From the NCBI RefSeq assembly GCF_035917675.1, contig NZ_CP109104.1, forward strand, positions 4,774,001 through 4,838,000: a stretch of DNA of 64,000 nucleotides, given 5' to 3'. Under the pieces are notes generated by a model. The model did no database searches. It saw nothing but the letters and a program-made list of their open reading frames with translations, and was not told the origin of the DNA. Of this stretch, positions 25,422 to 33,551 are shown piece after piece (position 1 is the stretch's first letter; every line of letters begins with the position of its first letter). The stretch comes from Streptomyces sp. NBC_01775 (lineage in GTDB: Bacteria > Actinomycetota > Actinomycetes > Streptomycetales > Streptomycetaceae). Made by a program: the position numbers and the translations under genes.

Positions 25422-26207
25422 TCAGCTACGGCGAGGACGGGTGACCGGCTTGGCGCCGGTCGCCCGCATCACGCCGCGCAGGTCCCCGCGCATCTCCCGC
25501 ATCTCCTCGCCCATGTCGGCGAGACGCTGGCTCATCGAGCACACCACCTTCTCGGTGTGCTCGGTCCTGCGTTCGGTCTCCACCAGGCGACTGTCCATTC
25601 GCTCGAGCCTCTCGGAGATACGCCCGATCACCGGGCCCAACTCCTGGAGCACGGCGCCCAGCTCGGCCCCGGCCGACTCAAGCCCACTGACGCGCCGGTC
25701 GAGAGAGCCGTAGCCGACAGCCAGCGTGCGGACGGTGTCCCTCAGTTCCTCACCCGGGCATCGCGTGGCTCCGCTCCGGGTGTGGGGGTGGGTGGTTCCC
25801 TCGACGTCGAGGAGGTAGACGCGGACCCTCCGCGCGATGTCGCTGTCCCGCAGCAGCATCGCCACATTGAGGACGGCGCGGCGGTTGAACAGGGTGAGGC
25901 TGCGCCGGAGCTGTGGATAACCCGGTTCTGGGACATTTGAGACTGACAACTTGTCAGTCTCAAATTCTTGCAGGTCAGCGCCTCGAAGAGTGCTGAGACC
26001 GTTGCTCTCCAGCTCCTCCCGGTGCCGACTGACCAACTTTTCCACAGTGTTGAGCGCCACCTCGAAGTAGTTAGCCACATCCCGGGTGGTGGCCTGTGTA
26101 CTACCTGTGGAAAACGCCAACGCCTTCACTTTGTCGAGGACTTCGACCCGGTGCGCCATGCCGGAGCGCGCGCTGCGCGACTCCAGCAGGACGGAATCGG
26201 AATACAT
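25422..26207 (-). CDS. Putative DNA-binding regulator with ORF6N/antirepressor-like segment
   Basis: A 261-residue cytoplasmic protein of a streptomycete family that I know only as hypothetical. The N-terminal part (MAHRVEVLDKVKAL, then VANYFEVALNTVEKLVSRHR) looks like a helix-turn-helix region. The middle (LTLFNRRAVLNVAMLLRDSD, then IARRVRVYLLDVEG) resembles ORF6N/Bro-type phage antirepressor domains. The C-terminal ~100 residues are a long amphipathic helix, probably a coiled coil (VIGRISERLERMDSRLVETE and following). ATG 26207 has a perfect AGGAGGG site. The gene contains a 31-bp perfect palindrome and is visibly less GC-rich in its middle than its neighbours, hinting at transfer. Confidence 0.78.
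   Translation of the reverse strand: MYSDSVLLESRSARSGMAHRVEVLDKVKALAFSTGSTQATTRDVANYFEVALNTVEKLVSRHREELESNGLSTLRGADLQEFETDKLSVSNVPEPGYPQLRRSLTLFNRRAVLNVAMLLRDSDIARRVRVYLLDVEGTTHPHTRSGATRCPGEELRDTVRTLAVGYGSLDRRVSGLESAGAELGAVLQELGPVIGRISERLERMDSRLVETERRTEHTEKVVCSMSQRLADMGEEMREMRGDLRGVMRATGAKPVTRPRRS
25935..25965. promoter_or_regulatory. Perfect 31-bp palindrome inside the ORF6N-like gene
   Basis: ATTTGAGACTGACAA, one central C (25950), then its exact 15-base reverse complement. Only 11 of 31 bases are G or C. It encodes the ETDKLSVSN stretch of the surrounding protein. It could be an operator, a recombination site or a hairpin in the mRNA; the sequence does not decide which. Confidence 0.8.
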
Positions 26208-26237
26208 GCGAGAACCCTCCTGGGTCCGGACGGACAT

Positions 26238-29912: not shown

Positions 29913-30737
29913 CTAGCTCTCTCCGAGGAGGCGCTCCAGGACGAGCGCGATGCCTTCCTCGTCGTTCGAGGACGTCACCTCGTCGGCGACCGACAGCAGT
30001 TCCTCGTGGGCGTTCTCCATGGCGACGCCGTGGCCGGCCCAGGCGAACATCGGGATGTCGTTGGGCATGTCGCCGAAGGCGAGCGTCTCGGCGGAGTGCA
30101 CCTTCAGGCGGCGGGCTGCCAGGGCGAGGCCCTTGGCCTTGCTGAGACCGAGGGGCAGCATCTCCACGATGTCCTCGCCGGACATCGTGACGGCCACCAG
30201 GTCTCCGGCGGCCTCCCGTGCGGCCTTCGCCAGCGCGTCGTCGTCGAGCTCCGGATGCTGGAGATAAAGCTTGTTGAGCGGATGGGCCCACAGCGCGGCG
30301 CGGTCCTCGAACGGGACGGAGGGCAGCGGCCCTTCCCGCACGCGGTATCCGGGACCGACGACGACCTCGCCGTCCACCCCGTCCCGGGAGGCGGCCAGCG
30401 CGAGGGGGCCGACCTCCTTCTCGATCTTGGCGAGGGCCAGTTCGGCCACTCTCCGGTCGAGCGTGACGGAGGTCAGCAGCCGGCCGGAGCCCGCGTCGTA
30501 GACCTGAGAGCCCTGGCCGCACACCGCCAGGCCCCGGTACCCGAGGTCCTCAAGGACGTGCTTGGTCCAGGGGACGGCCCGGCCCGTGACCACGACGTGG
30601 ACGGCACCGCGCGCGCACGCGGCGCTCAGCGCGGCGCGGGTGCGCTCCGAGACGGTGTCGTCGGAGCGCAGCAGCGTGCCGTCGAGATCGGTGGCGATCA
30701 GTCGGTAGGGGAAGGCCGGGCCGCTGTCCTGGTTCAC
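29913..30737 (-). CDS. HAD superfamily (Cof-type) hydrolase downstream of serS
   Basis: A 274-residue phosphatase related to the HAD protein at 2008-2823. It has [15 protein letters not shown] near the N-terminus, a TGR motif II (VVVTGRAVP), a Lys motif in [14 protein letters not shown] and [14 protein letters not shown] as motif IV. The Cof class acts on sugar phosphates and flavin or PLP precursors; the substrate is unknown. The GTG start at 30737 overlaps the serS stop (GTGA), so translation is coupled to seryl-tRNA synthetase, an arrangement I recall from other streptomycetes. The ~210 bp after its stop (29701-29912) hold no convincing gene. Confidence 0.9.
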
Positions 30738-32011
30738 TTGGCGGCCGGCTCCAGCGCCTCGCGTCCGCCCAGATAGGGCCGCAGCACCGGCGGCAGCCAC
30801 ACCGAGCCGTCCTCGCGCTGGTGGTTCTCCAGCAGGGCGACGATGGTGCGGGGCACCGCGCACAGCGTCCCGTTGAGCGTCGCCAGCGGCTTCACGTGCT
30901 TGCCGTCGCGCATCCGGATGGAGAGCCTGCGGGACTGGAACTGGGTGCAGTCCGAAGTGGAGGTCAGCTCGCGGTACTTGCCCTGGGTGGGGATCCACGC
31001 CTCGCAGTCGAACTTGCGCGCGGCCGAGGCCCCCAGGTCACCGGTGGCCACATCGATTACCTGGAAGGGCAGTTCGAGTCCGGTCAGCCACTCCTTCTCC
31101 CACTCCAGCAGCCTCCGGTGCTCGGCCTCCGAGTCCTCCGGCGCGACGTAGGAGAACATCTCGACCTTGTCGAACTGGTGGACGCGGAAGATGCCGCGGG
31201 TGTCCTTGCCGTACGTACCGGCCTCGCGCCGGAAGCACGGCGAGAAGGCGGCGTAGCGCAGCGGCAGCCGGTCGGCCTCGATGATCTCGTCCATGTGGTA
31301 TCCCGCCAGCGGCACCTCGGAGGTGCCGACGAGATACAGGTCGTCCTTGTCGAGGCGGTAGACGTCCTGCGCGGCCTGGCCGAGGAAGCCGGTGCCCTCC
31401 ATGGCCTGCGACTTGACCAGCGCGGGAGTCAGCATCGGCGTGAAGCCCGCCTCGTTCGCCTGCGCGATGGCCGCGTTGACGAGAGCCAGCTCCAGCAGTG
31501 CGCCGATTCCGGTGAGGTAGTAGAAGCGCGAGCCCGACACCTTGGCGGCGCGCTCGACGTCGATGGCGCCGAGCTTCTGGCCCAGCTCCAGGTGGTCCTT
31601 GGGCTCGAAGCCCTCGGCTCCGAAGTCACGGGGGACGCCGATCGTCTCCAGGACGGTGAAGTCCTCCTCGCCGCCCACCGGGACGTCCGGATGTACGAGA
31701 TTGCCGAGCTGACGCAGCAGCCGCTGGGTCTCCTCGGCGGCGTCGTCCTGCTCGGCGTCGGCGGCCTTCACAGCGGTGGACAGCTCGCCCGTGCGGCGTA
31801 GCAGCTCCGCCTTCTCCTCGCCCTGCGCCTTGGGGATGAGCTTGCCGAGCTGCTTCTGCTCGGAGCGGAGTTCGTCGAAGCGGACGCTGGAGGACCTGCG
31901 CCGCTCGTCGGCGGAGAGCACCGCGTCGACGAGGCCGATGTCCTCTCCACGGGCACGCTGCGAGGCGCGCGCACGGTCGGGGTCCTCACGGAGCAGGCGA
32001 AGGTCAATCAC
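30734..32011 (-). CDS. serS: Seryl-tRNA synthetase
   Basis: A 425-residue class II aminoacyl-tRNA synthetase charging tRNA-Ser, the exact usual length. Residues 1-105 are the N-terminal antiparallel coiled-coil arm ([36 protein letters not shown]). The catalytic core has motif 2 ([20 protein letters not shown]) and motif 3 ([20 protein letters not shown]). GTG 32011 begins the canonical [10 protein letters not shown]. The gene is followed by an overlapping HAD phosphatase gene and preceded by the DnaA-box cluster. A tRNA-Ser gene lies elsewhere in the window (53843). Confidence 0.97.
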
Positions 32012-32203
32012 TCGCCCAGGGTACCGGTGGGCACCCGGGCCTCTCGAATCCATATGGCTTTGCGCATGTTTTGTCCGTATTGAGGTATTTGCCGGGCCAT
32101 CCGGAAGAGGGGTTCGGGGGAATTCGCCGTATACGGGAAGCGCCGAGGCGGCAGCCTGACTCGGGCTCCCATGGGGGCAGTTGGGGACGGGTTTCCCTCT
32201 GAC

Positions 32204-32523
32204 TTATCCACAGCGGTGCGGGTCGTCCGCAGGCTTTTCCACAGGCTTGGATGCACTGCTGTGGAAATTGGAGCGGTGAGTTCCGGTGACTGTTCGGCTG
32301 GCGCAGAATTCCCGCGTCAAACCCGAAATACACACTCAAACGAGCGGGATTAGCTCACTCCAACGAGTTGATCAAGGGAATTGCGGTGACGAGGCGGGAC
32401 CTGAGCGCTGTGGACGGAGATGCGGTCTGCATGCTGCTTTGTCGACAGAGTCCGGTTTGTCTGTCGACTTGTGCACAGGTCGGCACCCAGCCCTGTGGAT
32501 AACTTTGCCGAGCCTGTGCACAC
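32204..32523. other. Cluster of DnaA-box-like sites in the serS-pheA spacer
   Basis: Seven nonamers close to the Streptomyces DnaA box (TTGTCCACA) fall in 320 bp: TTATCCACA (32204-32212), TTTTCCACA (32235-32243), and on the other strand ATTTCCACA (32260-32268), CCGTCCACA (32409-32417), then TTGTGCACA (32469-32477), and on the other strand TTATCCACA (32494-32502) and GTGTGCACA (32515-32523). The stretch 32280-32390 between them is relatively AT-rich. There is no gene between 32012 and 32621. From memory, S. coelicolor has high-affinity DnaA-box clusters near oriC, one called D78 in a cosmid that carries serS/pheA; this could be the equivalent locus. It is not oriC itself, since dnaA and dnaN are not adjacent. 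Confidence 0.72.
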
Positions 32524-32621
32524 ACCGCTCTTCCATGCTCACCCCGCGCCGACCGGCGCTCACCCGCCGTCGACAGGCGCTCACCCCGCGCCGATCCGCG
32601 CTCACTCGGGACGCTCTCCGT

Positions 32622-33551
32622 TCACTCCCGACCGTCGAGGCAGTGGCTCAGCCAGTCGGCAGCAGCCACGAAATCCTCGTCCGCGGTGCCCGAACGCAGC
32701 GTGGGCGGCTGCTCGTCGGCGCGCGGATACGAGCCGAGGAAGCGCACCTCGCGGCAGGAGCGCTTCAGCCCCATCAGGACGTCCCCCACCCGCCGGTCCT
32801 GCACATGGCCCTCGCAGTCGATCGAGAAGCAGTAGCGGCCGATGCCCTCGCCGGTCGGCCGCGACTCGATCCGCATCATGTTGACCCCGCGCGAGGCGTA
32901 CTCGTGCAGCACCTCCAGCAGCGCGCCCGGATGGTCCCTGCGCAGCCAGAAGACCACCGAGGTCTTGTCGGCGCCCGTCGGGGCCGAGGGCCGGGCCGGC
33001 TGGCCCAGCAGCACGAAGCGCGTCATCGCGTTCTCCGCGTCGTGGATGTCGGTGACCAGTGGCTCCAGGCCGTAGGTCGCCGCGGCGAACTCCCCCGCGA
33101 ACGCCGCGTCGTAGCGGCCCTCCTGCACCAGCCGGGCGCCGTCCGCGTTGGAGGCCGCCGACTCCCACAGCGCCTCCGGCAGGTGCTCGGCGAGCCACTT
33201 GCGCACCTGCGGCTGCGCCACCGGATGCCCGGTCACCGTCTTGACCGACTCCAGGCTCGTGCCCGGCCGCGCCAGCAGCGCGAACGCGATCGGCAGCAGC
33301 ACCTCGCGGTAGATCATCAGCCGACGGCCGCTCGCCAGCTCGTCCAGGGTCGCCGTGACCCCGCCCTCCACCGAGTTCTCGATCGGCACGAAAGCCGCCT
33401 GCGCCTCGCCGTTGCGTACGGGGTCCAAGGCGGCCGGGACCGAGACCATCGGCGTGAGCTGGCGGGTGGCGGCCTCGGGCAGGGTGTGCAGCGCGGCTTC
33501 GGTGAAGGTCCCCTCGGGACCGAGGTACGTATAGCGGCTCGCAGGTGACAT
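32622..33551 (-). CDS. pheA: Prephenate dehydratase
   Basis: A 309-residue enzyme converting prephenate to phenylpyruvate in phenylalanine synthesis. The catalytic domain starts with YTYLGPEGTFTEAAL, contains PIENSVEGGV and the NAMTRFVLLG segment with the Thr-Arg-Phe catalytic motif, and is followed by a C-terminal ACT domain (PGALLEVLHEYASRGVNMMR, then IESRPTGEG) that gives feedback inhibition by phenylalanine. There is no fused chorismate mutase, normal for actinobacteria; a broken chorismate mutase lies at 24.8-25.1 kb. ATG 33551 is the natural start. Confidence 0.96.
   Translation of the reverse strand: MSPASRYTYLGPEGTFTEAALHTLPEAATRQLTPMVSVPAALDPVRNGEAQAAFVPIENSVEGGVTATLDELASGRRLMIYREVLLPIAFALLARPGTSLESVKTVTGHPVAQPQVRKWLAEHLPEALWESAASNADGARLVQEGRYDAAFAGEFAAATYGLEPLVTDIHDAENAMTRFVLLGQPARPSAPTGADKTSVVFWLRRDHPGALLEVLHEYASRGVNMMRIESRPTGEGIGRYCFSIDCEGHVQDRRVGDVLMGLKRSCREVRFLGSYPRADEQPPTLRSGTADEDFVAAADWLSHCLDGRE

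What the first reader, a model, noticed from the sequence alone, without database searches (positions are those of the whole stretch)
32204..32523. Seven-site DnaA-box cluster between serS and pheA
Seven nonamers matching or near the Streptomyces DnaA box lie on both strands in 320 bp, including two exact TTATCCACA. The spacing and number resemble DnaA-titration or reactivation loci. From memory, S. coelicolor has such a cluster (D78) near oriC that limits initiation and delays aerial growth, so this may be the same locus in another species.
Basis: partly seen in the sequence, partly recalled or inferred. Interest (0 to 1): 0.75.

Follow-up and report, generated by a model that had tools for sequence, protein, structure and literature searches.

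The report
Streptomyces DnaA-binding brake beside serS
A stretch of DNA between two ordinary genes carries a conserved, precisely spaced set of likely binding sites for the protein that starts chromosome copying, very probably the counterpart of an already described Streptomyces brake on replication, and its spacing suggests one folded complex and not loose sites.

Summary
The 610-bp serS-pheA spacer holds 2 exact and 3 one-mismatch DnaA boxes plus weaker ones; a Markov model gives 0.16 and 0 of 2000 random sequences reach 5. By an ad hoc score it is the richest cluster in 398 kb round oriC, about 105 kb from oriC.

All 219 unique Streptomyces spacers examined have at least 4 boxes. Within 1.5-2 kb upstream of serS, 33 of 38 other Streptomycetaceae have 3 or more (a 34th when read on to pheA); none of 9 sister-family and 50 further class genomes does.

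New here: a block of about 300 bp with two box arms round a conserved ~90-bp core. Length changes inside keep helical register: 19 in, 2 out, against 11:11 in the pheA-side flank. This points to one phased nucleoprotein complex. In S. coelicolor a published ScbR2 target at serS has a proposed site that maps into the core. No binding was measured here.

The parts
32012..32621 (.). serS-pheA intergenic spacer
32494..32502 (-). Box A1, exact TTATCCACA
   Evidence: in 113 of 113 deduplicated blocks, by construction, because blocks were anchored on it
32469..32477 (+). Box A2 (TTGTGCACA here, most often TTGTCCCCA in relatives), facing A1, 25 bp start to start
   Evidence: 95 of 113
32462..32468 (-). 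Conserved GTCGACA motif S1 (weak-box-like)
   Evidence: 97 of 113
32439..32447 (+). TTGTCGACA, one-mismatch box; contains the second GTCGACA motif S2, usually 22 bp from S1
   Evidence: (87 of 113)
32409..32417 (-). Weak box CCGTCCACA
   Evidence: TCCACA in 52 of 113
32303..32392 (.). Conserved central core without strong DnaA boxes (CGTCA, TTCC, TTCCC ... GGGAA; a further GGAA near 32283), modal spacing of these half sites 30, 38, 29 bp
   Evidence: each half site as an exact motif in only 52-59 of 113; no RNA structure, no Rfam family
32375..32402 (-). Position equivalent to the proposed ScbR2 site of S. coelicolor serS; the site sequence is not conserved in this species
32260..32268 (-). 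Box B0 (ATTTCCACA), facing B1 at 25 bp
   Evidence: TCCACA 110 of 113; spacing 25 in 108 of 111
32235..32243 (+). Box B1 TTTTCCACA (TTATCCACA or TTGTCCACA in most relatives listed)
   Evidence: 111 of 113; partly by construction
32204..32212 (+). Box B2, exact TTATCCACA, 31 bp from B1 here
   Evidence: 90 of 113; 30 or 31 bp in 85 of 101
32514..32523 (.). Two overlapping two-mismatch boxes outside the conserved block; not conserved
30734..32011 (-). serS, serine--tRNA ligase
32622..33551 (-). pheA, prephenate dehydratase

Best explanation
This is the orthologue of the S. coelicolor D78 locus: an origin-proximal, high-affinity DnaA-binding element that keeps replication initiation down. Shown here: the boxes, their conservation in the family, the block of near-constant length, and the conserved core. 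Inferred: DnaA loads on two arms (A1/A2/S1/S2 and B0/B1/B2), which are held in helical register across the core, so that the element acts as one looped or wrapped DnaA complex. It removes active DnaA from oriC by storing it and perhaps by promoting ATP hydrolysis, as datA does. Being near oriC, it is copied soon after initiation, which doubles the sink. A non-DnaA protein probably binds the core.
For: Boxes are far above chance and the cluster is the richest round oriC. 219 of 219 Streptomyces spacers have at least 4 boxes. In 103 spacers there are 296 exact boxes in 65,039 bp against 0 for the reversed pattern, and 21 in 597,647 bp of flanks. Block length median 299 bp, CV 0.05, against flank CVs 0.86 and 0.24 in 93 spacers. 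Facing pair B0/B1 at 25 bp in 108 of 111. Core ten-base means 0.76-1.13 bits with one dip to 0.40, against 0.08-0.22 outside the block. Indels in register: 19 in, 2 out over independent pairs; pheA-side flank 11:11; Fisher p 0.0044; new loci alone 11:0 against 9:6, p 0.022. dnaA to serS 76-158 kb (median 90) in 36 genomes. One full copy in the genome; none in the plasmid or phage collections at E 0.01. datA likewise combines boxes with a bending-protein site whose spacing matters (passages).
Against: No DnaA binding, footprint or phenotype was measured for this species. The block-length CV is partly bounded, since blocks were sought with 170-330 bp between the end boxes. The register result came from exploring: a smaller test that pooled both flanks was not significant (12:2 against 15:8, p 0.26); pooled flanks in the larger set give p 0.055, because the B1-serS flank is itself partly phased (21:3); and its landmarks exist in only part of the rows (188, 117 and 141 of 253). 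No core-binding partner is known for this species.
Confidence: 0.75

Rival explanations
1. Passive titration only: independent high-affinity boxes soak up DnaA; spacing and core are incidental.
For: Number and quality of boxes; recalled plasmid-copy effects of D78.
Against: Near-constant block length, fixed 25-bp and 30-31-bp pair spacings, helical register and a conserved core.
Confidence: 0.3
2. The element is mainly a DnaA-controlled regulatory region of serS (or a long serS promoter region).
For: It lies upstream of serS, and the distance from B1 to the serS start is also partly in register (21 in, 3 out; p 0.0067 against the pheA flank in all rows, but 12:2, p 0.13 in new rows).
Against: Where the pheA-serS interval is longer (about 1.4-2.2 kb) the cluster lies near pheA, some 1.1-1.8 kb from serS (L194/L297, L195, L197, L200). 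serS changed only 0.947-fold in the scbR2 mutant although ScbR2 binds the probe. No sigma-70-like promoter was found in 31950-32700, a scan that covers one promoter type only.
Confidence: 0.15
3. A DARS-like reactivating site: facing boxes promote release of ADP from DnaA and stimulate initiation.
For: Facing box pairs A1/A2 and B0/B1; head-to-head boxes I and II are characteristic of DARS (passages).
Against: Deletion of D78 raised initiation (recalled; reviews say the cluster represses untimely initiation).
Confidence: 0.05
4. Chance or compositional cluster without function.
For: Several sites deviate from the Streptomyces optimum TTGTCCACA given in a review.
Against: 0 of 2000 Markov sequences; at least 4 boxes in all 219 Streptomyces spacers examined.
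Confidence: 0.01

Closest known systems
D78 cluster of Streptomyces coelicolor (J Bacteriol 2006;188:6184; recalled, not held)
   Same: DnaA-box cluster near oriC; serS-pheA = SCO3961-SCO3962; recalled cosmid D78 holds these genes; most box-rich cluster round oriC here
   Different: Different species; about 105 kb from oriC here; box-by-box identity with D78 could not be compared
E. coli datA
   Same: Intergenic box cluster near oriC, spacing that matters, a non-DnaA site with the boxes, negative effect on initiation (passages)
   Different: No sequence relation known; core partner unknown and no IHF-type site identified; ATP hydrolysis untested
E. coli DARS1/DARS2
   Same: Facing box pairs (passages)
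   Different: Opposite effect on initiation expected; three-box core not compared in detail
B. subtilis DnaA-box clusters (Okumura 2012, cited)
   Same: Named beside the S. coelicolor cluster in reviews as negative clusters
   Different: Not compared in sequence here

Membership tests
D78 locus | Lies between serS and pheA | tested here: met
   S. coelicolor gene numbers; that D78 lies on this spacer is recalled
D78 locus | Cluster of DnaA boxes, richer than oriC | tested here: met
   ad hoc score 17.5 against 10.0 for oriC; affinity itself not measured
D78 locus | One of three clusters round oriC (H69, H24, D78; recalled) | tested here: met
   clusters after a crgA-like gene, before dnaB and at serS-pheA, plus a fourth inside a reading frame at 25912-26114; cosmid and crgA names recalled
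D78 locus | DnaA binds about eight times better than oriC; deletion raises initiation (recalled) | not testable with these tools
   needs SPR and a deletion strain
datA | DnaA boxes plus a DNA-bending partner site with fixed spacing | tested here: inconclusive
   conserved core and helical register; partner unknown
datA | Promotes hydrolysis of DnaA-bound ATP | not testable with these tools
   needs biochemistry
DARS | Head-to-head boxes I and II with box III | tested here: inconclusive
   facing pairs exist at 25 bp; E. coli spacing not compared
DARS | Stimulates initiation | not testable with these tools
   recalled D78 phenotype is opposite

The most novel reading that the evidence does not exclude
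D78-type loci are not passive sinks but a helically phased DnaA machine of Streptomycetaceae with a control site in its core. In the S. coelicolor group the antibiotic-responsive regulator ScbR2 binds in that core, so antibiotic signalling would tune replication initiation and the onset of aerial growth through DnaA. Support: serS is among EMSA-confirmed ScbR2 targets with a serS change of only 0.947-fold, and the scbR2 mutant has precocious aerial hyphae, like the recalled D78 deletion. The proposed site maps between the two box arms. Limits: that mutant also loses three antibiotics, the site was not footprinted at serS, its sequence is found in part of the sample (48 of 265 spacers within 7 mismatches), and it is not conserved in this species.
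Probability: 0.2. Interest if true: 0.75.

Novelty: new member of a known kind. Interest (0 to 1): 0.5.

Why it matters
Streptomyces must couple chromosome copying to branching, aerial growth and antibiotic production, and how is still open. If D78 is a phased complex with a regulator-binding core, the coupling becomes directly testable with spacing changes and core swaps. It would also suggest that datA-like control arose anew in one family, since the sampled sister families lack it.

Tried and rejected
RNA element: no Rfam match beyond one chance hit and no consensus fold in the core (a random 50 of 113 rows). Mobile copies: none in the plasmid or phage collections at E 0.01; the 12 other own-genome hits are 16-29 bp pieces. 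Promoter or terminator: no sigma-70-like promoter, one weak terminator-like hit against 0.4 expected. A sigma-R reading of GGGAAT...GTTG was considered by eye; the gap is about 15 and not the recalled 18, so it was dropped. The primary D78 paper is not held. Register test: the first version misplaced A1 in rows with a short flank and was replaced. The tree-based count has a flawed control, because small steps are absorbed as drift; it is not used. The first independent-pair test was not significant against pooled flanks (12:2 against 15:8, p 0.26), so 100 more stretches were fetched and the test repeated; the bin edges were moved by one base between (14-19/20-25 to 14-18/19-24). Rows dropped: 5 of 111 stretches had no pheA and were left out; 12 of 265 spacers did not fit the block pattern, 4 of them from the two genera that lack the block; pairs less than 3% apart were not used; changes over 24 bp were not classed.

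Full report
OBSERVATION. The spacer between serS (30734-32011, -) and pheA (32622-33551, -) holds two exact TTATCCACA and three one-mismatch boxes, plus weaker ones. Five sites in 610 bp compares with a Markov mean of 0.16; 0 of 2000 random sequences reach it. In the organism's own genome the exact pattern TTRTCCACA occurs 54 times against 26 for the reversed pattern. The DnaA C-terminal domain lies at 4,701,347 on the minus strand and oriC-type boxes at about 4,700,524-4,701,087, so the cluster (4,806,204 on) is about 105 kb away. In 398 kb round oriC it is the top 330-bp window by an ad hoc score. Next come clusters after a crgA-like gene (named from recall) and before a rhomboid-like gene (4,667,513), inside a reading frame of this window (4,799,912), upstream of dnaB (4,737,642), and oriC itself.

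CONSERVATION. One scan found 156 relatives and kept the best 80 loci, 79 titled Streptomyces and one 'Actinobacteria bacterium OK074'. A genus search gave serS in 121 of 121 genomes. Of 111 stretches with serS, own locus included, 106 gave a spacer and 103 of these were unique; all 103 had at least 4 boxes, with 296 exact boxes against 0 for the reversed pattern. With 132 later loci (3 of all 132, family ones included, without a pheA stop, read as 1.5 kb), 219 of 219 unique Streptomyces spacers had at least 4. Of 49 other Streptomycetaceae genomes with a serS match, 38 were looked at: 33 had 3 or more boxes in the 1.5-2 kb upstream of serS, and G274 has 2 there but 4 when read on to pheA; the 4 without belong to two genera, g71 and g74. 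Seven genomes of these two genera carry 2 to 7 boxes within 1.3 kb 5' of pheA instead; six were also read past pheA, five of them through serS, without finding the block. Nine genomes of two sister families had at most 1 box upstream of serS, and nine (eight of them the same) at most 1 near pheA. Of 50 further genomes of the class none had 3 or more; one of them had only 40 bp upstream, and two (G191, G132) matched serS at only 39-42% identity. Where the pheA-serS interval is longer, the cluster lies near pheA.

ANATOMY. Read towards serS: A1 (TTATCCACA) faces A2 at 25 bp; two GTCGACA motifs follow, usually 22 bp apart; then a weak box; then a core with CGTCA and TTCC/GGAA half sites (modal spacing 30, 38, 29); then B0 facing B1 at 25 bp (108 of 111); then B2 30-31 bp on (85 of 101). 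The block is 299 bp at the median with CV 0.05 in 93 spacers, while the distances to pheA and serS vary with CV 0.86 and 0.24; the search for blocks allowed only 170-330 bp between end boxes, which bounds the first value. In 113 of 130 blocks kept after removal of near-identical ones, the core 32303-32392 has ten-base means of 0.76-1.13 bits with one dip to 0.40; a piece at 32273-32282 has 0.70; outside the block means are 0.08-0.22, apart from 0.64 just before A1, and stretches inside the block between sites fall to 0.14-0.38. The core forms no conserved RNA structure. Presence of A1 in every block, and partly of B1, is by construction. The core half sites are present as exact motifs in only 52-59 of 113.

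HELICAL REGISTER. Distances inside the block fall in groups about 10-12 bp apart with near-empty gaps (for example A1-S1: 21-22, 32-34, 44-47, 55-58, one at 77). The 55-58 group can reflect loss of S1, the second motif then being counted. To limit shared ancestry I compared disjoint nearest pairs of sequences at least 3% apart. Over three neighbouring intervals (188, 117 and 141 of 253 rows have the landmarks; 222 pairs) 19 changes were in register and 2 were not; the pheA-side flank gave 11 and 11 in 104 pairs (Fisher p 0.0044); A1-B1 alone gave 24 and 1 in 115 pairs. In the 123 sequences fetched or first used after the pattern had been noticed, each at least 3% from any earlier one, the block gave 11 and 0, the pheA flank 9 and 6 (p 0.022). 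Against this: the earlier smaller test with pooled flanks gave p 0.26, pooled flanks in the larger set p 0.055, and the serS-side flank is partly in register too (21 and 3; in new rows 12 and 2, p 0.13), so the phased region may reach the serS promoter.

MECHANISM. I take it as a negative DnaA element near oriC. DnaA binding is inferred from the boxes. The fixed spacings, register and core argue for one joint complex over loose titration sites, as in datA, where a bending protein is needed and spacing matters (PMC10380432, passages). Nearness to oriC (median 90 kb from dnaA to serS in 36 of 41 searched genomes, 35 of them single contigs; 3 without the block and 2 with serS at the far end of a rotated contig were left out) fits a dosage effect, as proposed for datA in E. 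coli (PMC4585315, passages), though synteny round oriC could explain it alone. In 3 of 36 genomes the locus lies on the other side of dnaA at 99-158 kb.

KNOWN OR NEW. The S. coelicolor D78 locus is known (J Bacteriol 2006;188:6184; not held; abstract recalled). PMC5742627 and PMC10950094 (passages) call the S. coelicolor cluster analogous to datA and say it represses untimely initiation. Gene identities SCO3961 serS and SCO3962 pheA are from PMC4595836 (one section with tables, and passages) and PMC6585502 (passage). That cosmids H69, H24 and D78 hold the crgA, dnaB and serS-pheA regions is recalled. Passages of PMC4285127, PMC3613396, PMC4210621, PMC3411110, PMC13152386, PMC13121528 and PMC5301196 did not place D78; PMC13220808 had none of the terms. 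I therefore file this as a further member of the D78 kind.

SCBR2 LEAD. PMC4595836 lists serS among ScbR2 targets confirmed by EMSA, with a possible 28-bp site, 0.947-fold serS change in the mutant, and precocious aerial hyphae of the scbR2 mutant, which also loses three antibiotics. The site matches two spacers with 1 mismatch (L126, L337); the 15 best matches lie 359-436 bp before serS, and in L126 and L337 between the A and B arms, equivalent to window 32375-32402 by way of L084. It was proposed by motif finding, not footprinted at serS. Only 48 of 265 spacers match within 7 mismatches. In the first 103 the median best match (13) is about that of shuffled sites (13.2; 20 shuffles on every fourth spacer), and this species is not among the 30 best listed, all with 12 or fewer. 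A search for papers with both ScbR2 and DnaA listed one, a transcriptome study seen only in the listing.

Noticed in passing
window 25912-26114: Another group of four boxes (one exact, three one-mismatch) inside reading frame 25422-26237 (-), which has only a weak match, below the cut-off, to an Rv1152-type regulator; 6 kb from the main cluster.
   Followed up: partly
L260:17642-17731 (own genome 4737642-4737731): Four one-mismatch boxes in 90 bp directly upstream of dnaB, 37 kb from oriC; probably the H24 cluster.
   Followed up: partly
L257:7513-7711 (own genome 4667513-4667711): Three exact boxes and one near box between a crgA-like gene and a rhomboid-like gene; probably the H69 cluster.
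   Followed up: partly
L270-L276: Seven genomes of two genera of the family carry 2 to 7 boxes 5' of pheA and not the serS-pheA block.
   Followed up: partly
window 32012-32235: The distance from box B1 to the serS start also tends to change in helical steps (21 in, 3 out), hinting at a link to the serS promoter.
   Followed up: partly
own genome 1929759-1929822 and 6022785-6023052: Two further close pairs of exact boxes far from oriC.
   Followed up: no
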